IMG/VR virus record: IMGVR_UViG_3300036945_001096
Coordinates: 34,268-98,267 of that record
Strand: one strand, 5' to 3'
Length of the DNA: 64,000 nucleotides
DNA from: a virus
The notes under the pieces are model-generated. The model saw only the letters and a list, made by a program, of their open reading frames with translations. It searched no databases and had not been told where the DNA came from. Positions 41,420 through 53,067 of this stretch are shown in pieces (positions within the stretch are counted from its first letter, which is position 1; each line of letters opens with the position of its first letter). The translations under genes and the position numbers were made by a program.

Positions 41420-41815
41420 ATGGAATTGTTAGAACGATATATAAAAGAAATCGAAGAAGATCTTAAGATTGACGAATTTAACATAAAAGAAGTAGGCCTA
41501 AGAATACCTGCTCGTAAACATTTTTGGGTTAGTAGACTGATCAATCATAAACGTAATCTATTAAAGCTCGAAAACGATAAGAATTTTTTTAAAAAAACTG
41601 TAATGACTGAACTACAAACACAGTCACCTGTTAAATTAAGTTTGATTACAGCAGAAAATGCTGCTGAAAACCATGATAAAATGAGAGAGATGAATATTAA
41701 AATAGGTGAAGAGAAAATAATCATAGAATTTCTTGAAAAGACAGAAAAGACATTTTCATCTATGACCTACGATGTTTCAAATATTATAAAAATAATGCAA
41801 TTAGAGCAATTGTAA
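41420..41815 (+). CDS. uvsY: UvsY-like recombination mediator
   Basis: UvsY helps load UvsX recombinase on gp32-coated DNA. The 131 residues are close to T4 UvsY (137) and share the plan: acidic N-terminal helix (KEIEEDLKIDEF), a basic HFWVSRLINHKRNLLKLENDK segment that resembles the DNA-contact part, and a long helical C-terminus. It lies directly before uvsW (1-nt overlap), matching the T4 uvsW/uvsY pairing though in reverse order. Confidence 0.78.
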   Translation: MELLERYIKEIEEDLKIDEFNIKEVGLRIPARKHFWVSRLINHKRNLLKLENDKNFFKKTVMTELQTQSPVKLSLITAENAAENHDKMREMNIKIGEEKIIIEFLEKTEKTFSSMTYDVSNIIKIMQLEQL

Positions 41816-43260
41816 TGAAAAGTATACGTATAGATTATCTAAAAAATCGTGGACTTTGTAGGTTATCTGGTGATTTTCTAACTGAAATAAGGGAACATTT
41901 CAGTGTAAAGAACGAAGGTGCCTTTTTTATGAGAAAAAAAGGGATGAGGTTTGTTGCTGATAGAAAATACTTTATAACACCTACAGGTATGTTTGAGCCG
42001 GGGCTATTTTTTGATATATGTAAATTTATATCTGTAAGTTTTACTGATGTAAACCTAGATATTGATAAAGATATACCAAAGGTAGTTAGACCAACAGTAA
42101 CCGGTGTTGATGTTTATGATGATCTATCTCTTAAACTTAGAGATTTTCAAAGCGAAACAATAAAGAACGCGCTTTCATTCGGTAGAGGTATAATTAAAAT
42201 AGGTACAGGTGGTGGTAAGACTTTAATCTCAGCAAGTTTATTGAGTACGTTTTATAATTATAAGGTTAAGAAACTAAAAGCACTAATGATAGTTCCAGAT
42301 CTATCACTTGTAAACCAAACACACTCTGATTTTCTAAGCTATAAAGTACCATTTACTGTTACAAGATGGACTGGAAATATAGAACCTGATCTTAGCAGTG
42401 ATGTTATCATAGCAAATATAGGTATATTACAAAGCAAATATGCAGAAAATCTATGGATAAACGATGTAGATTTAGTTATTGTTGATGAAACGCACAAATT
42501 AAAAGGTAAAAACAAAATATGTAAACTTGTAGATGAAATTAAAACATACCATAAATTTGGTCTTACAGGTACATTACCTGATGATAGAGGTGAAGAGCTA
42601 AATATTATAAGTAAATTAGGTACTATTATCTATGAAAAGAGTAGTTTTGAATTAAGAGAAGAGAAATATCTTACACAAGTATCTATTAAAGTATTAGATA
42701 TAGATTATACTACTAAAGTTCCTCAAATACCTGGCACTAATAAGTATAAATCAGAATTAGAACACATCTATAATAATAAATTTAGAAACAATATAATTAA
42801 TACACTATGCAAAAACTTTAATAACAATACTCTAATACTAGTAAATCATATATCACACGGCCAGTTAATTTACGATAATCTTAAAGCTAAATTACAAGAT
42901 AAAATCGTATATTTTATACGAGGTGATGTAGATGTAGATGAGAGAGACAGAGTTATTAAGGAGATGGAAGTTAAAGATAATATAGTTTGCGTTGCAATAA
43001 GTGCCATATTTTCTACTGGTATTAATGTAAAAAATATACATATGATAGTTTTTGGATCAGGTGGTAAAAGCTTTATAAGAATTATACAATCGATTGGTAG
43101 AGGTTTAAGATTACACAACAACAAACAAAAATTGACTATTGTAGATATAGTAGATAATCTAAAATACGGTGGTGCTCACGGTATGCATCGCAAATCTATT
43201 TACGATAGAGAAAAAATTAATTATTCTTCAACAAAACTGGTTGAAAAACCTCTAGATTAA
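41815..43260 (+). CDS. uvsW: UvsW-like RNA-DNA and recombination helicase
   Basis: The 481-residue SF2 helicase has an N-terminal wing, motif Q/I LRDFQSETIKNAL and IKIGTGGGKTLIS (near residue 125), DEAH-type VIVDETHKLKG, motif III FGLTGTLPDD, and motif VI RIIQSIGRGLRLH. In T4, UvsW unwinds branched and R-loop structures and shuts off origin replication late. Overlaps uvsY by one base. Confidence 0.92.
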   Translation: MKSIRIDYLKNRGLCRLSGDFLTEIREHFSVKNEGAFFMRKKGMRFVADRKYFITPTGMFEPGLFFDICKFISVSFTDVNLDIDKDIPKVVRPTVTGVDVYDDLSLKLRDFQSETIKNALSFGRGIIKIGTGGGKTLISASLLSTFYNYKVKKLKALMIVPDLSLVNQTHSDFLSYKVPFTVTRWTGNIEPDLSSDVIIANIGILQSKYAENLWINDVDLVIVDETHKLKGKNKICKLVDEIKTYHKFGLTGTLPDDRGEELNIISKLGTIIYEKSSFELREEKYLTQVSIKVLDIDYTTKVPQIPGTNKYKSELEHIYNNKFRNNIINTLCKNFNNNTLILVNHISHGQLIYDNLKAKLQDKIVYFIRGDVDVDERDRVIKEMEVKDNIVCVAISAIFSTGINVKNIHMIVFGSGGKSFIRIIQSIGRGLRLHNNKQKLTIVDIVDNLKYGGAHGMHRKSIYDREKINYSSTKLVEKPLD

Positions 43261-43273: not shown

Positions 43274-43723
43274 ATGGCAAAACGAGGTCCAAAACCTAAA
43301 AAGACAGAATATTATGTAGACCCTGAAGAGTTTAAACAGAAACTTGTTATATATTATAAATCTAATGAAATTACAAATGAGTTAGCTGAATATATTAATA
43401 AAATTGCAACAGGTCTAAGTTATTCCTCAAATTTTATTAACTATACATATAGAGATGAAATGGTAGGCGATGCAATAGTAAAGATGTATACTGCAGTTAA
43501 GAATAAAAAGTTCGATATTAAATCAGAATTTAACCCTTTCAGTTACTTTACAACAATAGCATTCAATGCATTCATTAATAGAATCAAAAAAGAAAAGAAG
43601 CATCACGATACGATAACAGAGTATAAAGAAAGAATGTATGAGCAAGAGTTAACAGAAAATTGCGATGTTGACCTCTACGTAAAGCCAATTAGTGATGATT
43701 ATGACAGTGACTCCTCTGAATAA
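43274..43723 (+). CDS. 55: Late sigma factor gp55
   Basis: gp55 directs host RNA polymerase to TATAAATA promoters. The 149 residues contain a region-2 like block, YSSNFINYTYRDEMVGDAIVK and FNPFSYFTTIAFNAFINRIKKE, as in T4 gp55 (185). The acidic end is also typical. The many TAAATA-type promoters in the window are its expected targets. Confidence 0.88.
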   Translation: MAKRGPKPKKTEYYVDPEEFKQKLVIYYKSNEITNELAEYINKIATGLSYSSNFINYTYRDEMVGDAIVKMYTAVKNKKFDIKSEFNPFSYFTTIAFNAFINRIKKEKKHHDTITEYKERMYEQELTENCDVDLYVKPISDDYDSDSSE

Positions 43724-44762
43724 TAAAATAGCAATATTTACGGACTTACATTTAGGGGTACATCAAAATAGCGATTTTTGGTTAAATGTTGCTTTAAACT
43801 GGGCAAATTGGTTTGTATCTGAGCTCGAATCTAATAATATAGATACTGTTATATTTTGTGGTGATTGGATGCATTATAGAGATGCAGTAGAAGTTAAAAC
43901 TCTACATTATCACTCACTAATTTTACAAAAATTAAGTAAATTTAAGATTATTATGATACCAGGTAACCATTGCTGCTATTATAAGAACACATCAGATGTT
44001 CATAGCCTTTCAATAATGAAAGGTAATTCTAATATACAAATTTTTGATAATATAACCAGTGTAGATTTTAATGGTAAACGATTTACATTCTGCCCTTGGG
44101 GATGTGACATAAAAGATATTCCGCAAAGTGATGTAGTGTTTGGTCATTTTGAACTACAGAATTTTAGAATGAACGGTCATAAAATCTGCGAACATGGAGA
44201 TAACCCAGATGATTTAACAGCAAAAAGTAAGCTAGTATTTTCAGGACACTTTCATCAACGAGATGAAAAGGTATTTTCAAACATCTGCAAAATAATTTAC
44301 GTAGGTAACCCATTCCAGACAGACTTCGGTGATGCCTATCAAACAAAAGGTTATTATCTATTAGATACAGATACACTACAATTTGAATTTAAAGAAAACA
44401 CATTAACACCTAAACATCTAAAAGTTTCTCTTTCAGAGATTATTACGAACAAAGACCCAATCACATATTTTAGCAATAACTTTAAAGGTAATATTATTAA
44501 GCTAATAGTAGATAAAAATATATCAACAGACCATCTAGATCTTTTAGTCGGTAAAATAACAACATTTAAACCTGCAGATCTTAAAATAGATTACGATGTT
44601 AACTACAATAAACTAAAAGTACACGAAGATGTAGTAGACTCTGACATAAAGGGCGCTGAAATAGAAAATATTGTAACAGAATTTGTAAGCATGTTAGATA
44701 TAAATAACAAACAGGAAATTATAAAATATACTTTATCCTTATACAATAAGGTAATTACATGA
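43695..44762 (+). CDS. 47: Recombination nuclease subunit gp47 (Mre11/SbcD-like)
   Basis: gp47 with gp46 resects DNA ends. The 355 residues have the metallophosphoesterase motifs: IFTDLHLGVH (I), FCGDWMHYRD (II), IPGNHCCYYK (III), FGHFEL (IV) and FSGHFHQRDE (V). Starts at GTG 43692, ATG 43695 and ATG 43701 are all possible; the gene begins within the last codons of gene 55. Ends in ATGA overlap with gp46. Confidence 0.93.
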   Translation: MIMTVTPLNNKIAIFTDLHLGVHQNSDFWLNVALNWANWFVSELESNNIDTVIFCGDWMHYRDAVEVKTLHYHSLILQKLSKFKIIMIPGNHCCYYKNTSDVHSLSIMKGNSNIQIFDNITSVDFNGKRFTFCPWGCDIKDIPQSDVVFGHFELQNFRMNGHKICEHGDNPDDLTAKSKLVFSGHFHQRDEKVFSNICKIIYVGNPFQTDFGDAYQTKGYYLLDTDTLQFEFKENTLTPKHLKVSLSEIITNKDPITYFSNNFKGNIIKLIVDKNISTDHLDLLVGKITTFKPADLKIDYDVNYNKLKVHEDVVDSDIKGAEIENIVTEFVSMLDINNKQEIIKYTLSLYNKVIT

Positions 44763-44992
44763 AGTACGTAAACTTTAAAAACATAAAGATAAAAAACTTC
44801 CTATCAGTAGGTGATGATGTGGTTAGTTTAGACTTTAATACAGGTTTAAATATTATCACCGGTATTAATAGAGATAAGGAAGACAGAAGAAACGGTGTAG
44901 GTAAGTGTGTTGATCCGCAGACTGAAGTAACTATTCAAATAAAGGATGCAATGGTTTTGGAAAAGTTTAAAAAATTTATTGAGAATCAATAA
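44759..44992 (+). CDS. 46: gp46 N-extein fused to a 28-residue N-intein
   Basis: Residues 1-49 are the start of gp46 (Rad50/SbcC-like ATPase), MKYVNFKNIKIKNFL to RRNGVGK, which breaks off inside the P-loop. From Cys50 the sequence CVDPQTEVTIQI is intein block A (splicing Cys, then TEV), followed by a charged helix and a stop at 44990. The remaining intein and gp46 parts start at 46054. Trans-splicing would join Lys49 to Ser of the C part and restore NGVGKSTIADAL. N-intein nucleotides are 44906-44989. Confidence 0.88.
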   Translation: MKYVNFKNIKIKNFLSVGDDVVSLDFNTGLNIITGINRDKEDRRNGVGKCVDPQTEVTIQIKDAMVLEKFKKFIENQ

Positions 44993-44995
44993 ATA
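44988..44995 (+). promoter_or_regulatory. Late promoter, AATAAATA, 5 nt before endonuclease ATG 45001
   Basis: Overlaps the TAA that ends the N-intein. It would make the intein-associated endonuclease a late gene. Confidence 0.68.
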
Positions 44996-45000
44996 ATTAT

Positions 45001-46082
45001 ATGAGTTACAATTCACCACAACAATGGCAATTTTGGGTAACTAGAAAAAGAATCAACCCTGATACTGGAATAGTTTTTACAGAAGAAGAAGCAAAAAGGC
45101 ATGTAAGCTCATTTAGAAAATCCTCAAAGTACTTTTGGATTAAAAAAGGGTATACAGAAGATGAGGCTATTAAAAAAGTATTAGAGCATCAACAAATATT
45201 ATCGCAAAAAAGTAAAAGCAAAAATACAGGACGAAAGGATTGGAGAAATAATCAAGTTGGTTATTGGGTTAAAAAGGATTAACAACGCAAGATGCAATTA
45301 ATAAGGTTAAGGAAAGGCAGTCTACGTTTTCACTTAAAAAATGTATTGAAAAGTATGGAGAATTAGAAGGTTTAAAAGTTTTTAATAACCGACAGAAAAA
45401 GTGGCAAATTACATTACTTTGTAAAAGTAGTAAAGAAATTGAGTTAATAAACAAACTTAAACAACATAGTTTAGAGTCGTTTATATTACGAAATTGTAAT
45501 TTAGATGATTATTGTAAATTTAGGGTACAAAAAGGTTCAGATCAATACATCATACACAAAACAAAAAAGTATATTTTAGAAAACAAAATAGAACAAACAA
45601 CAGAAAATTTTAACACACACTATTATAATTTTAAATATATTACATATAAGAAACGCGGCAAAGCCTCTAAAGAAAGTTTAAAGATTTTAATACCTTTATA
45701 TAAGTTTTGTAGGAAATTAGGTATACAACGTAATGATATCATGATAGGAATTACAGGGTCTAAGGAGTTCTCATTAAGAGATAATAAAAAAATATTTTAC
45801 TTTGATTTTACAATATCTTCTCTTAAGATTATTATCGAATACAACAGATATGAATTTCACCCAGATCCTGAAATTATGTCACATGATGAAATTAAAAATT
45901 TTAAATACCCATATAAAAACATCTCCATAACATCAAAAATAGAACATGAAAAAAAGAAACATTTAATTGCTAAAGACAATGGATATAATATTATTAAATT
46001 TTGGTCACACAAACCATATAACAGTCAAATAGAAAGTATAAAAAAAGAAATTAATGAAAGCTACTGTAAAACAAATAGCTGA
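45001..46082 (+). CDS. Homing endonuclease between the split-intein halves, with a -1 frameshift
   Basis: Two open frames cover the gene. Frame one (45001-45282) has W-x-KKG-xT repeats (FWIKKGYTEDEAIKKVLEHQ). After a -1 shift at AAAAAG (45271-45276) the next repeat reads YWVKKGLTTQDAINKVKERQ, so both frames belong to one protein of about 360 residues. The C-terminal part has FYFDFTISSLKIIIEYNRYE and a NGYNIIKFW block, as in Vsr-like EDxHD nucleases. It is either a recent loss of function, a homopolymer sequence error or a recoded gene. Confidence 0.75.
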
Positions 46083-48078
46083 TTTTTATAAAGTATATCC
46101 TCAATATAAAGGTCATATTGATGTAGAGACAAGATTTGGGTTTAACCCTATCGATGAAGCAGATGTAACAGCATACAATGAACAAGTTTATGAAATTGAA
46201 ACTGATGCCGGAAAAAACCTTAAATGTTCAGGTAACCATAGAGTATTTACAGGTGTAGAGTTTGTAAAGGTTCAACATTTAAATGTAAATGAAATTGTTC
46301 ATACAAAGGACGGTTGTGAAACTATAAAATACGTAAGAGGTACTAATTTATTTAAAAATTTATATGATTTGCAAGTTAGAAACGTTAAGGAATATTATAG
46401 TAACGGTATTACATCACACAATTCCACTATAGCAGATGCATTATACTTTGCTATATTTGGTACTACATTAAGAGAACTTAAGAAAGAGTTTATATCAAAC
46501 AATATAACTCAAAATACATGCGAAGTGCAATTAGAATTCGATGTTAATCAAAACGGTAATACAAACACATACAACATAATAAGAACATTATCACCGTCTA
46601 GATTGTTTCTTTATAAAGATGGTAATGATATAACATTAGATACTATTGCAAATACAAATTCGTATATTGAAACTGTACTATCATCATCACCTGAAGTATT
46701 TAGAAATTGTGTACTGATGACATTAAATGATACTCTACCTTTCATGTCAAAGTCTAAAGTAGAGAAAAGAAAGTTTATTGAACAAATATTCAATTTGCAG
46801 GTTTTCTCTGCAATGATGTCTTCTCTTAGAGAAGACCAAAACAGCACAAAGAGAGAACTAGACATAGAAAATGCCAGACTTAGTGAAATTAAAAACAGTG
46901 TATCTGCCTTTGAAAAGCAAAAGGAGTTAAAGTCTAAAGAAAAAGAGACCAAGATATTAGCGATTAATAAAAAAATCAAAGATAACGAGGCAGAGATACA
47001 AAAGATTGAAACTGATATTCAAAATGAAGTTATAATAAATCAGACTGAAAAGAATACAGAATTAGAAAAATATACTAAGGCTTTGGTTAAGGTAGAAGAA
47101 CTATGCAATCAGACACTTGGAAATGTAGCAACAGTAAAAAACGAAATCAAAACCAAAAAAGAGCAATTACAAAAAGTAGGTACTACTGAACAGATTTGCC
47201 CTACATGCTTACGTCCAATATCAGAACACGATATAGAGGAGATAGAAAAAGAAAAGAAAAATATGCATAACGATGTGCTAAAATTAGTAGAGACATTATC
47301 TGCATATGTAAAAGAGGCAAATGGTTTAGAAGATAAAAAGTCCAAAATAAAGAAACACATAGATAGTCTTAATAAAGATATAAAGCTTGCAGCAGTGCAA
47401 GAAACTACAAGACAGTCAAATAAGAAAAGAATTACAGATTTACAGAATTTAAATAAACAGTTACAAGAAGGTAGCATAACTATATCAAACGATGTCACGA
47501 CTTTTGATGAATTAATAAAAGAGGCAAATACAAAGATAGAAACATCCAATAATACAATTCAAAGTCTTAAAAAGAAAGCTGATATGCTTGAGGTTGTAAA
47601 GTTTGTAATAAGTGAAGAAGGTGTAAAGAGTTTCCTAGTAAAGAAAATTCTACAAAACTTTAACGCAAAATTAGCATTCTACCTCAAGAAGCTAGATAGT
47701 AATAGTATATGCATATTTAACGAGTATTTTGAAGAAGAGATATTAAACGAAAAAGGTAAGATATGCCTTTATAATAACTTCTCTGGTGCAGAAAGAAAAG
47801 CTATTGATTTAGCATGTCTTTTCTCATTTATTGATATGAGAAAGACTCACGGAGATGTATACTATAATGTAACTGTATATGATGAACTATTTGATACCAG
47901 CTTAGACCAACGTGGTGTAGAGCTAGTAGTAGATATTCTAAAAGAAAGAGTAGAAACGTTTAAAGAATCTATTTTAATTATCTCGCATAGAAAAGAGAGT
48001 GTAAAAGCTGTAAACGGAGATATAATCTTTCTTGAAAAGCATAACGGAATAACAAAACGTGTAAACTTTGTTGATTAA
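46054..48078 (+). CDS. 46: 123-residue C-intein fused to gp46 C-extein
   Basis: Residues 1-123 are intein: block B-like GKNLKCSGNHRVFT (His62), LYDLQVRNVKEYYSNG (block F) and ITSHN (block G, splicing Asn123). From Ser124 gp46 resumes: STIADALYFAIFGT completes the P-loop; long coiled coils flank the zinc hook ICPTCLRPIS; then the signature FSGAERKAIDLA and Walker B VTVYDELFD. Joined to the 49-residue N part it gives a 600-residue gp46 (T4: 560). The start overlaps the endonuclease end by 29 nt. C-intein nucleotides are 46054-46422. Confidence 0.9.
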   Translation: MKATVKQIADFYKVYPQYKGHIDVETRFGFNPIDEADVTAYNEQVYEIETDAGKNLKCSGNHRVFTGVEFVKVQHLNVNEIVHTKDGCETIKYVRGTNLFKNLYDLQVRNVKEYYSNGITSHNSTIADALYFAIFGTTLRELKKEFISNNITQNTCEVQLEFDVNQNGNTNTYNIIRTLSPSRLFLYKDGNDITLDTIANTNSYIETVLSSSPEVFRNCVLMTLNDTLPFMSKSKVEKRKFIEQIFNLQVFSAMMSSLREDQNSTKRELDIENARLSEIKNSVSAFEKQKELKSKEKETKILAINKKIKDNEAEIQKIETDIQNEVIINQTEKNTELEKYTKALVKVEELCNQTLGNVATVKNEIKTKKEQLQKVGTTEQICPTCLRPISEHDIEEIEKEKKNMHNDVLKLVETLSAYVKEANGLEDKKSKIKKHIDSLNKDIKLAAVQETTRQSNKKRITDLQNLNKQLQEGSITISNDVTTFDELIKEANTKIETSNNTIQSLKKKADMLEVVKFVISEEGVKSFLVKKILQNFNAKLAFYLKKLDSNSICIFNEYFEEEILNEKGKICLYNNFSGAERKAIDLACLFSFIDMRKTHGDVYYNVTVYDELFDTSLDQRGVELVVDILKERVETFKESILIISHRKESVKAVNGDIIFLEKHNGITKRVNFVD

Positions 48079-48100
48079 TTAAGAATACAATAACCAAAAC

Positions 48101-48108
48101 AATAAATA
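48101..48108 (+). promoter_or_regulatory. Late promoter, AATAAATA, 5 nt before endonuclease ATG 48114
   Basis: AATAAATA, TATAT, ATG. Confidence 0.68.
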
Positions 48109-48113
48109 TATAT

Positions 48114-48983
48114 ATGAACATAGATATTGTTTATGAAAGTAGGCATCAAAATACAAAAGGTAAAGCTAAAGAAATTATAATAAATTATATTGAAGGTTAC
48201 TCAGCGTCAGAACTTGCTAACCTATATGCCGTTAATGTATCTGTAATTAGAGAAATAATAATTAAAAACGGTGTTTCGTTACGTAATAAAAAAGAATCCA
48301 GAAACATATTAAGATATAATGAAAAAAGAAACAATACAATTTACAAAAAATTTACAGAAGATGAGATAAAAGATATTATTCAGGAGTATTCCAACGGTAA
48401 GGGTGTCAATTATGTATCCAAAAAATACAGCGTAGATAATTGTGTTATTATTAGAGTTTTAAATGAAAATGGTATTAAAAAAAGAAACAGAAAAGAACAA
48501 TATAATTATAAAAATGTTACTAACGAATTGTTTAAACAGACCATTATATTAAAATATAATGGTTGGGGTGAATTAATAAAGAGATATCAAGAAAAATTTA
48601 AAGAAGAGTATGGAGTTATTAACCCTATGCAAGTTGCAGAGTATTTTGAAAAACAACAAAATAGCGCTTTTTCTATAAAAACATTTATAGTAGGAGAGAA
48701 GGAATTTAAAACACAAGGCTATGAAAATAAAGCAATTAATTTATTATTAGCTAAAGGTTATACAGAAGATGATATCGAAACAGGTAAATGTAACATGCCT
48801 CCCTTTACGTATACATATAATGGTAAAGAGCATAGATATTATCCAGATATTTTTATAATTAAAGAAAAAAGAATAATTGAAGTTAAAAGTGAATACACAT
48901 TTAAAATTGATTTGGAAAGAAATTTAGCAAAAAAGAAATGTGTAGAAGAAAACGGTTATAAATTTGATTTCTTAATATTTTAA
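48114..48983 (+). CDS. Free-standing homing endonuclease, PD-(D/E)XK-like
   Basis: The 289 residues have two helix-turn-helix-like repeats (YSASELANLYAVNVSVI with NGVSLRNKKESR; KGVNYVSKKYSVDNCVI with NGIKKRNRKEQ) for DNA binding. A C-terminal nuclease-like block follows: HRYYPDIFIIKEKRIIEVKSEYT, that is PD followed by E-x-K. It lies between gp46 and a gene with an ORF-less group I intron, and is a candidate to mobilise that intron. A late promoter lies 5 nt upstream. Confidence 0.75.
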   Translation: MNIDIVYESRHQNTKGKAKEIIINYIEGYSASELANLYAVNVSVIREIIIKNGVSLRNKKESRNILRYNEKRNNTIYKKFTEDEIKDIIQEYSNGKGVNYVSKKYSVDNCVIIRVLNENGIKKRNRKEQYNYKNVTNELFKQTIILKYNGWGELIKRYQEKFKEEYGVINPMQVAEYFEKQQNSAFSIKTFIVGEKEFKTQGYENKAINLLLAKGYTEDDIETGKCNMPPFTYTYNGKEHRYYPDIFIIKEKRIIEVKSEYTFKIDLERNLAKKKCVEENGYKFDFLIF

Positions 48984-49005
48984 AATAATATACTGTATAT
49001 AAATT

Positions 49006-49165
49006 ATGTTCGTACCTAATTCAATAAATAGACCTAGACTACCGTTTAGTGACCCTACACAGCAAATACAACAAACAGTACAGCCTCAACGACAGAGTGA
49101 AGAAATGCTTCCACCAGAACTATCTTTGCCAAGATTTTTAAACTACTACGCAGACTACTCAGGCT
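49006..49165 (+). CDS. Glycosyltransferase, exon 1
   Basis: Codes for 53 residues from MFVPNSINRPRLPFSD to LNYYADYSG plus the first base of the next codon. Without splicing the frame stops at TAA just inside the intron. The exon ends in GGCT, whose last T pairs with G of the internal guide GGCC in P1. Exon 2 is 49409-50472. Confidence 0.8.
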
Positions 49166-49408
49166 AAACCTTGGCCCATTATATAGTAATATATAATGCA
49201 AACTCCTTTAATTGCTGGAAACCTTAACTGGTAATCAGCAGCGAAGCCATAACGGAACGTTCAACGACTATCACAAAAGTGAGTACACATCAAGTGATGT
49301 GGAAATGGGGAGCACCTTACGAGGTGATGATATAGTCTAATCTATATAGAAATATATAGCAGCTTTAATAAGCGGGTTTTAATTAACGATTTAAACTGAA
49401 TATAAATG
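49166..49408 (+). ncRNA. Group I intron, 243 nt, without ORF
   Basis: P1: exon GGCT pairs with intron GGCC (49173-49176), with the T-G wobble at the splice site. P4: TGCTG (49213-49217) with CAGCA (49236-49240), in the P and Q elements. P7: GACTA in GTTCAACGACTA (R, 49266-49270) with TAGTC in GATATAGTC (S, 49333-49337). P9-like: CTATATA-GAAA-TATATAG (49342-49359). The 3' end at G49408 keeps the frame and gives SGCGHWRM; the alternative end at 49411 also keeps the frame. Confidence 0.88.
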
Positions 49409-50472
49409 GTGGTCACTGGAGAATGATCTGGCCTGAGCAAGTACTCAACGCTCATCAAAAGGCTGTTGTGCATGGTACAACAGTAATGAATCTAGATCCA
49501 AGATATTATACTATGGTAAAGTCCGTAAGAATTCAAAGACAAGCAACAAGACAACAGCTTGAATTTGTAAGATTCTTACGTGATGTTTCAAAACAAAACG
49601 GGATGAAAATAATTTATGAAATAGATGATATCTGTTTCAAAGAGGACATACCAGACTATAACAAGTTTAAGCCAGCTTTTGATAATCCAGAGATAAGAGA
49701 ATCAGCATGTGCAATTATGGCTCTGTGTGATGAAATTACAGTTACTTGTGATTTCATGAAAGATTACTACAAGAGTAAGACAGGTAATAAGAATGTTACA
49801 GTAATTCCAAACTTCATGCCTAAGTTCTGGTTAGGTAATTATTACGATGGTACTGAAATAATGACAAGTTATGATAATAATAAGAAGAAGCCACGTATTC
49901 TCTATACAGGTTCAGGTGCACATTTCGATGTAGAAAACAGAACAGGAAATTATAACGATGACTTTTTCCATGTGAATAATGTAATTCGTAAGACTGTTGA
50001 TAAGTTTCAGTGGATATTCTTAGGTGCATTTCCATTACCGTTAATGGATCTCGTAAAATCTGGTAAGATCGAATTTCATCCATGGTCTAAGTTATATAAC
50101 TATGGTCAAGATATTGCTAATATTAAAGCAAATATGATGATAGCACCACTACAAGATAACAACTTTAATAAAGCTAAGAGCGATCTCAAGTATATTGAAG
50201 CGTGTGCTTTTGGTCTACCTATTGCATGTCAAGATATAGTAACATACTCAAATGCTCCTATTAAGTTCAAGACTGGTGATGAAATGATAGACAGAATCAA
50301 CGAAACTCTTAAAGACCACAAACAATATAAGGCAATATCAAAACGTGCAAGACAGTATGCAGAAACACGCTGGCTTGAAACGGATACCAATATAGATTGT
50401 TACTTAGAGCTATACAGCACACCTTATGGTAGCAGTGCAAGAAAAAATATAACAAAATACAATCGGGAATAA
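49409..50472 (+). CDS. Glycosyltransferase (GT4-like), exon 2
   Basis: With exon 1 the spliced protein has about 407 residues. Exon 2 carries the GT-B C-terminal domain: KPRILYTGSGAHFDVENRTG, WIFLGAFPLPLMD, DIANIKANMMIAPLQDNNFNK and YIEACAFGLPIACQD with the donor-binding Glu. The internal Met at 49423 could be misread as a start. The gene lies immediately before DNA polymerase. The target, whether DNA base, virion or host glycan, is unknown. Confidence 0.85.
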
Positions 50473-50487: not shown

Positions 50488-53067
50488 ATGAGTTATAGGA
50501 ACGCTTTTTATAACAGCAAAGAACAGAAGATAACTATATTAGGGTGGGATGAAAATGGTAAAAGAAATGTACAAGATTTTACCTATAAACCCCACCTCTA
50601 TATAGAAGGTCCTGGTGAATATGATTCAATATTCGGTACTAAGCTAGTTAAACGTATATTTAATACTCAATTTGACAGAAGCTCTTTTATCACCAATACA
50701 GGTATAACAAGAGTATTCGATAATTTTCCATGTGTTCAACAGTTTCTTATAGAGCGATTCTATAAAGATAACGAAACACCCGACTTTAGTAAAAATGATG
50801 TAAGAGTAGTATTTATTGACATTGAAGTTATTGCAGAAGAGTTTCCTGACGCAAGATATTCGAAATACCCTATCAATGTCATTACTATATATGATTCAAC
50901 TACAAAGAGATTTATATGCTGGGGCGAAAAACCTTTTAATGTAGTCGATAGTGATGTAGACTTTATATATTGTAAAAATGAAGTAGAATTACTTACTAAG
51001 TTTATAGATTGGTTTAAATCTGATCCACCCGATATTGTAAGTGGATGGAATAGTATGGGATTCGATATTCCATATATCATGAATAGGGTACAAAACCTTT
51101 TTGGTGATAATACACGTAATAGTTTATCACCAGCAGGTAAAACGTACTTCCGTGAAATACACAACGATAAAGGTCAAGACTTGCAGCGCTGGTTTATAGA
51201 AGGTGTATCTCTTATAGATTATCTTGACATATATAAGAGGTTCTCACCAGGTGAAAAAGAGAGTTACAAGCTAAACAGTATTGCTAAATTAGAACTAGGT
51301 GAATCAAAGGTAGATATTGGTACAGGTAATCTAATAGATCTATACAATGAAAATTGGCAGAAGTTTGTAGAGTACAATATTCAAGACGTAAGACTACTTA
51401 AGAACCTTGAGTTCAAACTAAGATATTTAAACCTAGTGAGAATGTTTGCATATATAGGACTAACTACATTTGAAGCAGCAATGGGTTCTATATCAGTTAT
51501 AAATGGAGCAGCAGCAATACGCGCTAAACATAAGAATCAAATACTGCCTACATTTATACGCAATGTAGAGAGTGGCGTTAACCCCGGTGCGTTTGTTCGT
51601 GAACCATTACCTGGATTTAAAAAGCATATAGTATCATTTGACGCTAACTCTCTATATCCTAATGTGATGATTACTCTAAATACATCACCAGAGACAAAGA
51701 TAGGTAAAATAATTAAACGAGAAGATGGTAATGTGGTAATACGACACGTTACAGGTCAAACATTTACACTTACTGAAGACAAGTTTGCTCTTTTTATACA
51801 AAAGGAGAGACTTACTATAAGTAAGGCAAATATTATATTCACACAGAAAAAGCGTGGTATATTTCCTGAGGTATTAGATTATTACTACAAGGAGCGTAAA
51901 AAGACGCAAGCTAAACTTAAGAAAGTAAAACTTCGTATTAAAGAATTAGAAGAACTAAATCAAACAGAATGCGAAGAGTATAATAATCTAAAGAACGAGA
52001 GTGTTCAATTAGACTCTAAGCAATTGGCTCAAAAGATATATATTAATGCAACTTATGGTGCATTTGGTAACAAAAACAATCCATTAGGTGACGACGATAT
52101 AGCCTCATCTGTAACCTTAACCGGTCAAGAAGTAATTAAATTTGCAGGAGAGGTTGCTAAAAAGTTCGTAAAAGAGAATGTACCAAATATAACAGAGCAA
52201 GATAATAATGATATCGTAGTATATGGCGATACAGATTCTATTTATCTTACTTTAGATAATATTGTACAAAACGGTGTAATATTTTCTAACAAACCTGGCA
52301 AGATTAGTAAAGAGTTTTACGATAAAGTAAAAGAGCTAGGTGATATGCTCAATAACGAAATAAAAGTATGGGGTGAACGTGAATTATTCTCAGAAGATAG
52401 TAGGTTTGTATTTAAAAGAGAAGCAATAGCTGATACCGGTATCTTCTTACAGAAGAAAAGATATATAATACATGTCTTAGATATTGAAGAAATACCTTGT
52501 AATAAATACAAATACGTAGGTGTAGATGTTGTACGTAGTACAATACCATCTGCTGTTAAACCTTATATTAAAGATATAATTGAAACGATGCTCTCTACTC
52601 AGGATTATTCTAAAACGAATATATCAATTAATAACGTGTGGGAGATATTTAAGACACTACCGATCGAATCTATTGCAACGGTTAGTAATCTAAATAATTA
52701 TGAAGCAAGAGAACAACTCAGTAATGGTTTCGAAATAGCCAAAGGTACACCGCATCATATTAAAGCAGCAATATTTTATAATAGACTTATTGAAAAGCTA
52801 CAGTTAACTAACAAATACGAAAAGATATCATCCGGTGATAAAGTTAGATTATTACAACTACAGACACCTAACAAATATAATATCGAAAAAATTGCTTATA
52901 AATACTACTACCCTGAAGAATTTAAACAGATCTTTCAGCCAGACTACGAATTAATCTTTGAAAAGACTGTACTCGCAGCTGTAGAAAGACTATATGAAAA
53001 TGTCAGATGGGAATTACAACGGCCAGGTTCTATTGTTCAAACTAATTTATTTGATTTATTCAGTTGA
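50488..53067 (+). CDS. 43: DNA polymerase gp43, family B
   Basis: At 859 residues it is near T4 gp43 (898). The 3'-5' exonuclease motifs are VVFIDIEVIAEE (Exo I), DIVSGWNSMGFDIPY (Exo II) and YNIQDVRLLKN (Exo III). Polymerase motifs are SFDANSLYPNVMI (A), KIYINATYGAFGN (B) and VYGDTDSIYL (C). The C-terminus ends in a hydrophobic LFDLFS, which may dock on the gp45 clamp. No intein or intron is seen. Confidence 0.97.
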   Translation: MSYRNAFYNSKEQKITILGWDENGKRNVQDFTYKPHLYIEGPGEYDSIFGTKLVKRIFNTQFDRSSFITNTGITRVFDNFPCVQQFLIERFYKDNETPDFSKNDVRVVFIDIEVIAEEFPDARYSKYPINVITIYDSTTKRFICWGEKPFNVVDSDVDFIYCKNEVELLTKFIDWFKSDPPDIVSGWNSMGFDIPYIMNRVQNLFGDNTRNSLSPAGKTYFREIHNDKGQDLQRWFIEGVSLIDYLDIYKRFSPGEKESYKLNSIAKLELGESKVDIGTGNLIDLYNENWQKFVEYNIQDVRLLKNLEFKLRYLNLVRMFAYIGLTTFEAAMGSISVINGAAAIRAKHKNQILPTFIRNVESGVNPGAFVREPLPGFKKHIVSFDANSLYPNVMITLNTSPETKIGKIIKREDGNVVIRHVTGQTFTLTEDKFALFIQKERLTISKANIIFTQKKRGIFPEVLDYYYKERKKTQAKLKKVKLRIKELEELNQTECEEYNNLKNESVQLDSKQLAQKIYINATYGAFGNKNNPLGDDDIASSVTLTGQEVIKFAGEVAKKFVKENVPNITEQDNNDIVVYGDTDSIYLTLDNIVQNGVIFSNKPGKISKEFYDKVKELGDMLNNEIKVWGERELFSEDSRFVFKREAIADTGIFLQKKRYIIHVLDIEEIPCNKYKYVGVDVVRSTIPSAVKPYIKDIIETMLSTQDYSKTNISINNVWEIFKTLPIESIATVSNLNNYEAREQLSNGFEIAKGTPHHIKAAIFYNRLIEKLQLTNKYEKISSGDKVRLLQLQTPNKYNIEKIAYKYYYPEEFKQIFQPDYELIFEKTVLAAVERLYENVRWELQRPGSIVQTNLFDLFS

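What the first reader, a model, noticed from the sequence alone, without database searches (positions are those of the whole stretch)
44759..48078. gp46 is a fractured gene joined by an atypically split intein inserted in its P-loop
Seen: the first frame gives the gp46 N-terminus up to NGVGK, then CVDPQTEV (intein block A) and a stop after 28 intein residues. About 1.06 kb later a second frame starts with 123 residues ending in YYSNGITSHN (blocks F and G) and resumes gp46 at STIADAL. Joining K49 to S124 restores a perfect Walker A. Known: Dassa et al. (2009) described fractured genes with split inteins and a nuclease gene in between. Most natural split inteins have a long N part; a very short N part with a long C part is rare (AceL-TerL type, Thiel et al. 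2014). Inference: gp46 ATPase activity depends on trans-splicing, and this is a natural short-N split intein in a recombination ATPase, possibly not described.
Basis: partly seen in the sequence, partly recalled or inferred. Interest (0 to 1): 0.93.

Follow-up and report, generated by a model that had tools for sequence, protein, structure and literature searches.

The report
Split intein fractures phage gp46 gene
A phage recombination gene is broken into two genes by a mobile DNA insertion, and each half carries part of a self-splicing protein (a split intein) that should rejoin the two protein pieces; the same kind of cassette turns up in other phage genes, so it is a new example of a known but little-catalogued kind.

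Summary
A 1,517-bp insertion (44906-46422) splits gp46 (phrog_77, SbcC-like) between the P-loop Lys49 and Ser. The upstream ORF ends in a 28-aa N-intein and the downstream ORF begins with a 123-aa C-intein; 78 of 80 gp46 relatives (two of them 86-87% identical in flanking DNA) have no insert. Joined, the halves pass curated intein cut-offs that neither passes alone.

Between the halves lies an EDxHD/Vsr-like homing-endonuclease gene, frameshifted here. Searching with that nuclease alone, 49 of 57 evaluable distinct relatives have an intein C-part just downstream. Hosts include TerL, ATP-dependent proteases, DnaB, clamp loader, PhoH and seven further distinct gp46 genes split at the P-loop. Short-N split inteins are thus not rare in this set.

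Best reading: a mobile cassette of the known 'fractured gene' kind whose intein restores gp46 by protein trans-splicing. Splicing itself is untested. New member of a known kind; no gp46 case appeared in the (capped) literature listings seen.

The parts
44759..44905 (+). gp46 N-extein (49 aa, ends NGVGK at the P-loop)
   Evidence: phrog_77, 1.4e-5; 96% identical to L002/L003; abuts the C-extein in 78 of 80 relatives
44906..44992 (+). N-intein (28 aa, Cys1 ... FIENQ) and stop codon
   Evidence: joined to the C-intein it raises TIGR01445 from 21.3 to 31.4 bits, cut-off 24.5
44906..46422 (+). whole 1,517-bp insertion, absent from L002/L003
   Evidence: blastn, junctions
45001..46082 (+). EDxHD/Vsr-like homing-endonuclease gene, broken by a frameshift near 45275 (pieces 45001-45282 and about 45273-46082)
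   Evidence: frames; relative L087 aligned through KK|GL; family profile hits I-Bth0305I 3r3p, E 1.4e-4; fold search: Vsr first, E 0.02
46054..46422 (+). C-intein (123 aa; contains helix alpha1, block B His, block F Asp; ends HN)
   Evidence: (H62, D105, N123 invariant in 61 rows)
46423..48078 (+). gp46 C-extein (551 aa, starts with the P-loop Ser)
   Evidence: phrog_77, 8.3e-68; dN/dS 0.053
43692..44762 (+). gp47 (SbcD-like nuclease subunit), uninterrupted partner gene directly upstream
   Evidence: (phrog_100, 1.9e-75)

Best explanation
A mobile cassette made of a naturally split class-1 intein (short N-part, split at S1) and an EDxHD/Vsr-like homing endonuclease has inserted exactly between the P-loop Lys and Ser of phage gene 46. 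Shown: the precise insertion, the separate ORFs, the joint intein signal, the predicted fold of the C-part, the catalytic residues, purifying selection on both gp46 halves, and recurrence of the cassette type. Inferred: the N-precursor (gp46 1-49 + 28 aa) and the C-precursor (123 aa + the other 551 aa of gp46) are translated separately, bind, and trans-splice to restore NGVGK-STIAD, giving active gp46 ATPase for the gp46/gp47 complex. Also inferred: the endonuclease once cut intein-free gp46 alleles so that repair copied the cassette across; in this genome it has decayed by a frameshift while splicing must be kept.
For: Empty site in 78 of 80 relatives, two of them 86-87% identical in flanking DNA. 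Joined N+C intein passes TIGR01445 (31.4 bits, cut-off 24.5) and Pfam Intein_splicing (36.5, cut-off 35.8); the C-part alone does not (21.3 bits; whole C ORF 20 bits), and the N-part alone matched no intein family. C-part model pLDDT 97.4; top match VidaL, Foldseek 8.4e-8, TMq 0.86, Z 17.1, rmsd 1.5 over 117. Block B His, block F Asp and the terminal Asn are invariant in 61 C-inteins and present here. dN/dS against L002: gp46N 0.030, gp46C 0.053; gp47 0.060, sigma-like 0.058, uvsW-like 0.062, polymerase 0.046. 49 of 57 evaluable distinct endonuclease relatives have a C-intein directly downstream, while neither profile hits the 79 loci L002-L080 (905,847 bases, E <= 1e-3). Endonuclease and C-intein distances correlate over 64 pairs (r 0.54, 0 of 2,000 permutations). 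Seven further distinct gp46 genes (phrog_77) carry a split intein at the P-loop. No Rfam RNA at E up to 5 in 44600-46700.
Against: No splicing assay. The 28-aa N-part has no intein hit on its own. Only one virus (two identical records) carries this allele. The endonuclease frame is broken, so homing today is unlikely. The dN/dS divergence may mostly predate the insertion. 8 of 57 evaluable endonuclease relatives have no C-intein within 1.5 kb (one of them, L147, has one at about 1.7 kb). The joined 151-aa intein was not folded (tool rule), so the N-part's fit is not tested structurally.
Confidence: 0.87

Rival explanations
1. Gene in pieces without splicing: the two gp46 fragments assemble non-covalently and the intein remnants are inert.
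For: PMC2988022 (passages) describes split phage genes such as nrdA of Aeh1 whose product is functional as separate polypeptides.
Against: The break lies inside the P-loop and puts 123 aa in front of the Walker A Ser. The intein catalytic residues that I checked are kept, and the joint intein score passes the cut-offs.
Confidence: 0.06
2. Decayed locus: the intein or gp46 is already inactive and the phage lives without gp46.
For: The endonuclease between the halves is frameshifted.
Against: Both gp46 halves are open, with dN/dS of 0.03 and 0.05 like their neighbours; gp47 is uninterrupted; intein residues are conserved.
Confidence: 0.05
3. Assembly or sequencing artefact: the true gene is one contiguous intein-endonuclease frame.
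For: The endonuclease frameshift may be an indel error; the 209-kb second record is identical and may come from the same data.
Against: Many other contigs show the same arrangement of separate ORFs; the first Met of the C-part ORF lies -60 to +30 nt from the endonuclease stop in 64 of 78 entries, and N-parts that stop shortly after the Cys recur in other gp46 loci.
Confidence: 0.02

Closest known systems
VidaL and PolB16 OarG: naturally atypically split inteins, S1 split
   Same: short N-part, split after strand beta2 and before helix alpha1; VidaL is the top fold match of the C-part (S1 site per PMC13014065, passages)
   Different: N-part 28 aa versus 16 and 15 aa; host gp46; Cys1 and Ser+1 here, whereas PolB16 has Ser at both (PMC10189870, passages)
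AceL-TerL / GOS-TerL: atypically split inteins, S2 split (PMC13014065, passages)
   Same: short N-part, phage ATPase host; terminase is also the commonest host in the set examined here
   Different: here helix alpha1 is in the C-part, so the split site differs
[quoted passage not shown] not held; title seen in reference lists; content recalled)
   Same: two half genes, split intein, free-standing endonuclease gene between them
   Different: host gene gp46, short N-part, endonuclease frameshifted here
Split gene 43 of Aeromonas phage Aes508 with VSR-like gene
   Same: same order: N-half, VSR-like gene overlapping the start of the C-half; its VSR-like gene is a 26% relative of the window's second endonuclease piece
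   Different: canonical split (annotated 120 + 40 aa) and DNA polymerase host; the related Aes123 PolB1 intein is described as cysteine-less (abstract in listing)

Membership tests
Split class-1 intein | Cys or Ser at intein position 1 | tested here: met
   Cys follows NGVGK
Split class-1 intein | block B His, block F Asp, penultimate His, terminal Asn, nucleophile at +1 | tested here: met
   H62, D105, N123 invariant and H122 nearly invariant in 61 sequences, all present here; +1 is Ser. Block names are recalled
Split class-1 intein | sequence fit to curated intein models when the halves are joined | tested here: met
   TIGR01445 31.4 over 24.5; PF14890 36.5 over 35.8
Split class-1 intein | Hint/horseshoe fold | tested here: met
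   C-part alone: pLDDT 97.4, Z 17.1 to VidaL; the N-part was not folded
Split class-1 intein | protein trans-splicing activity | not testable with these tools
   needs expression of both halves
Atypically split intein, S1 site | break between strand beta2 and helix alpha1 | tested here: met
   first element of the C-part is helix 5-14; C-part residues 1-123 align to VidaL 23-141
Atypically split intein, S2 site (AceL-TerL type) | break after helix alpha1 | tested here: not met
   helix alpha1 is encoded in the C-part
EDxHD/Vsr-like homing endonuclease | catalytic domain related to I-Bth0305I/Vsr | tested here: met
   family profile vs 3r3p E 1.4e-4, Vsr 0.02; fold search weaker: Vsr E 0.02, 3r3p 0.17, nothing at E <= 0.001; the conserved D, E and H columns are kept here
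EDxHD/Vsr-like homing endonuclease | one open reading frame | tested here: not met
   frameshift near 45275, same in the identical second record
Homing element | precise insertion with empty alleles | tested here: met
Homing element | site-specific cleavage of the empty gp46 allele | not testable with these tools
   needs an enzyme assay
Group I/II intron | intron RNA inside the insertion | tested here: not met
   no Rfam match at E up to 5 in 44600-46700
gp46 / SbcC-Rad50 | phrog_77 match; Walker A restored on joining as in the empty allele | tested here: met

The most novel reading that the evidence does not exclude
Short-N split inteins are not curiosities. They are the intein half of a widespread phage mobile-element class, [short N-intein]-[EDxHD endonuclease]-[C-intein], that repeatedly enters P-loops of phage ATPases, often right after the Walker A Lys. 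gp46/SbcC hosts its own S1-split lineage with a helix-like tail on the N-intein. Living in gp46 ties the element to a gene thought to take part in phage homing itself.
Probability: 0.6. Interest if true: 0.75.

Novelty: new member of a known kind. Interest (0 to 1): 0.62.

Why it matters
Characterised natural short-N split inteins are few (N-parts of 15-37 aa per PMC13014065, passages) and are sought for protein semisynthesis. This locus and the cassettes around it give many new candidates, including one with a 14-aa N-part (L106). For phage biology it is a recombination ATPase that should have to be made by joining two proteins, and an endonuclease family that predicts where such inteins lie, so the set can be enlarged and tested directly.

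Tried and rejected
Close-relative searches with the window's C-intein alone and endonuclease piece alone in viral contigs found only the identical virus; profiles from small alignments were needed. Group I/II intron inside the insertion: rejected; a group I intron lies elsewhere, at 49155-49359. Programmed frameshifting to rescue the endonuclease: considered from the sequence, but the site (T AAA AAG) is not a classic heptamer (recalled rule), L087 reads through there, and of 50 distinct relatives with a recognised motif 46 have an ORF reaching 85 or more residues upstream of it. Translation-start evidence: of 25 plus-strand ORFs of 150 aa or more, 21 have a 3-base Shine-Dalgarno match, 3 none, 1 four bases, so this does not help to judge the C-part start. 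Pfam gave no family at E <= 1 for the second endonuclease piece. My N-intein pattern is permissive: it marked 68 of 79 entries, and some (e.g. L101, L108, L149, L154, L166) look like chance; I rely only on the 49 entries (48 distinct N-parts) with GK before Cys. The 79 entries share 77 endonuclease ORFs, and a few C-inteins with no such motif or in one frame with their Cys are among them, e.g. the second C-part of L141. In the 74 C-exteins one of the 75 references prepared was left out, an overlapping second C-part of L198; 4 of the 79 entries had been dropped before as too short or duplicate records. Alignments A3 and A4 used 60 of 90 and 44 of 61 prepared loci stretches, chosen by hand for variety. 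Of 58 distinct endonucleases 8 had no C-intein within 1.5 kb and 1 was cut off by the contig end.
Full report
WHAT IS THERE. The window is G000:C1:34268-98267 of a 98-kb virus record. Gene order looks T4-like (gene names recalled from T4): a helicase 41815-43260 (uvsW-like; Pfam ResIII), a sigma-like protein 43274-43723 (Pfam sigma-70 region 2, below cut-off), gp47 43692-44762 (phrog_100), gp46, and an 859-aa ORF 50488-53067 that reads as a B-family DNA polymerase (not scanned). gp46 is two ORFs. 44759-44992 encodes 49 aa of gp46 ending NGVGK, then 28 aa beginning CVDPQTEV and a stop. 46054-48078 encodes 123 aa ending NGITSHN and then 551 aa of gp46, beginning STIADAL. The two lie in different frames, 1,061 nt apart. 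Both match phrog_77, the SbcC-like subunit.

THE INSERTION IS PRECISE. A viral-contig scan with the C ORF gave 266 relatives, of which the best 80 were kept. In 78 of 80 the segment matching residues 1-49 abuts the segment matching the C-extein exactly; L001 is interrupted and L014 lacks the start. L002 and L003 are 86-87% identical to the window in DNA on both flanks and run NGVGK-STIADAL without an insert, so 44906-46422 (1,517 bp) is an insertion. Both gp46 halves show purifying selection against L002 (dN/dS 0.030 and 0.053; four neighbours 0.046-0.062), although most of that divergence may predate the insertion. L001 belongs to a 209-kb contig (G001) identical to all 64,000 window bases; it may not be independent data.

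IT IS A SPLIT INTEIN. The C-part alone scores 21.3 bits with TIGR01445 (cut-off 24.5), and the whole C ORF 20 bits with Pfam Intein_splicing (cut-off 35.8). The joined 28+123 aa score 31.4 and 36.5, above both cut-offs, with TIGR01445 matched from its first to its last position. A profile of 61 C-inteins finds gp41-1 (6e-20), VidaL (1.5e-19) and CatC (8e-17) among solved chains. Invariant columns of that alignment are H62, D105 and N123, with G29, N117 and H122 nearly so; the window has them. AlphaFold2 on the C-part gives pLDDT 97.4 and pTM 0.87; its first element is helix 5-14. Foldseek's best hit is VidaL (E 8.4e-8, TMq 0.86); VIA-align gives Z 17.1, rmsd 1.5, 117 aligned, with other inteins tied within 1 Z. 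The first intein helix therefore lies in the C-part. PMC13014065 (passages) calls a break after strand beta2 'S1' (VidaL, PolB16) and one after helix alpha1 'S2' (AceL TerL, GOS TerL), and gives N-parts of 15-37 aa. This one is S1 with 28 aa.

THE GENE IN BETWEEN. 45001-45282 and about 45273-46082 are two frames of one endonuclease gene, broken near KK|GL at about 45275; a relative from a huge phage (L087, 433-aa ORF) reads through there. A profile of 45 relatives matches the I-Bth0305I catalytic domain (3r3p, E 1.4e-4) and Vsr (0.02). The model of the second piece (mean pLDDT 79.8) finds Vsr first, but weakly (E 0.02; nothing at E <= 0.001). Three conserved columns (D, E, H) in the catalytic region are kept in the window. 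The C-intein ATG lies 29 nt inside the endonuclease end. In the family the first Met of the C-part ORF lies -60 to +30 nt from the endonuclease stop in 64 of 78 entries, which suggests coupled translation. With the frameshift, the window's C-part would have to initiate on its own.

A FAMILY OF CASSETTES. Starting from the endonuclease only, a scan of viral contigs found 153 confirmed relatives, of which 80 loci were kept. They hold 58 distinct endonucleases; 49 of the 57 with enough downstream sequence have an intein C-part starting within -200 to +1,500 nt of the end, 8 do not. Neither profile matches in the 79 loci L002-L080 (905,847 bases). Scanning with C-inteins gave 56 loci. Over all loci examined (L082 onward) 79 distinct C-intein entries have an endonuclease match upstream (77 distinct ORFs); 49 of the 79 have an upstream ORF ending in GK|C plus a tail, the N-parts being 14-58 aa long. 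Of 74 C-exteins scanned against PHROGs, 32 match a terminase large subunit family, 23 an ATP-dependent protease, 6 phrog_77, 4 a DnaB-like helicase and up to 6 a clamp loader; one member may match several families. PhoH is the host in L087. Pairwise distances of endonuclease and C-intein correlate over 64 pairs (r 0.54; 0 of 2,000 permutations), as expected if they travel together, though a shared host gene contributes.

gp46 AS A RECURRENT SITE. phrog_77 C-parts with a C-intein: L097 (L098 holds the same C-part with more flank), L104, L144, L159, L178 and L191. In L098, L104, L144, L159, L178 and L191 an upstream ORF ends in a P-loop GK followed by Cys; that of L098 is itself phrog_77 (1.7e-4). 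The one endonuclease relative confirmed in the genome collection (84,980 species), L236, from a MAG labelled Treponema (perhaps phage DNA), lies again in a phrog_77 gene (C-part 3.5e-61, N-part 1.1e-5). Its C-intein is 41-42% identical to the window's (50 and 51 of 122) and its endonuclease 43% (113 of 260 aligned), but its N-intein lies in another frame than its N-extein, so that copy is broken or misassembled. That makes seven further distinct gp46 cases. The S1-type N-inteins of the window, L098, L104, L144, L159 and L178 have a tail that looks helical, L159 least (inference). L191 has a longer, S2-like N-part and no endonuclease match upstream, so gp46 was entered by at least two sub-types.

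MECHANISM. Inferred: the two precursors meet, the N-intein completes the C-intein's horseshoe, and class-1 splicing joins K49 to the P-loop Ser. Until then neither half has a whole P-loop. Homing would have been driven by the endonuclease, which is broken here. PMC2988022 (passages) lists gp46 and gp47 as possible participants in phage homing, so the element may sit in a gene that serves its own spread; this is speculation.

NOVELTY. Dassa 2009 (fractured genes) is not held; its title was seen in reference lists and its content is recalled. PMC10189870, PMC12707363, PMC3943268, PMC5259590, PMC10448857 and PMC7090010 were seen as passages. The listings of nine searches, each showing at most 20 of the papers found, showed no gp46 split intein; subscription papers are mostly missing. 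I file it as a new member of a known kind. The abundance of short-N cassettes and the gp46 lineage are the newer part.

Noticed in passing
window 49155-49359: Group I intron (RF00028, 96.6 bits) between ORF 49006-49167 and ORF 49423-50472 (weak glycosyltransferase match, below cut-off); absent from L002, where blastn pieces ending at 49157 and starting at 49409 lie 8 bases apart.
   Followed up: partly
window 48083-49098: A second insertion just downstream of gp46, absent from L002/L003, with ORF 48114-48983 (DUF7487; weak TnsA-like nuclease match). With the intein cassette and the intron this makes three mobile-type insertions within 5 kb.
   Followed up: partly
L087 2401-5672 (LR756500, 462-kb uncultured phage): PhoH-like gene split by the same kind of cassette: 26-aa N-intein, open 433-aa endonuclease ORF, C-intein, then TGKT; the record is unannotated.
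   Followed up: yes
L106 3382-5618: N-intein-like end of only 14 aa after GIGK, shorter than the 15 aa that PMC10189870 calls the shortest characterised; host phrog_1250, unknown function.
   Followed up: no
L105, L119, L141, L142, L145, L160, L198, L203, L220: Two or three successive intein C-parts along what looks like one terminase gene, so the protein would need several splicing events; terminase family matches were checked only for one piece each of L142, L145, L203 and L220, and one L141 intein is contiguous.
   Followed up: partly
L089 2512-3534 (Caulobacter phage Cr30): Free-standing relative of the endonuclease directly upstream of an uninterrupted terminase gene; 97 bp match the window DNA at 78%.
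   Followed up: partly
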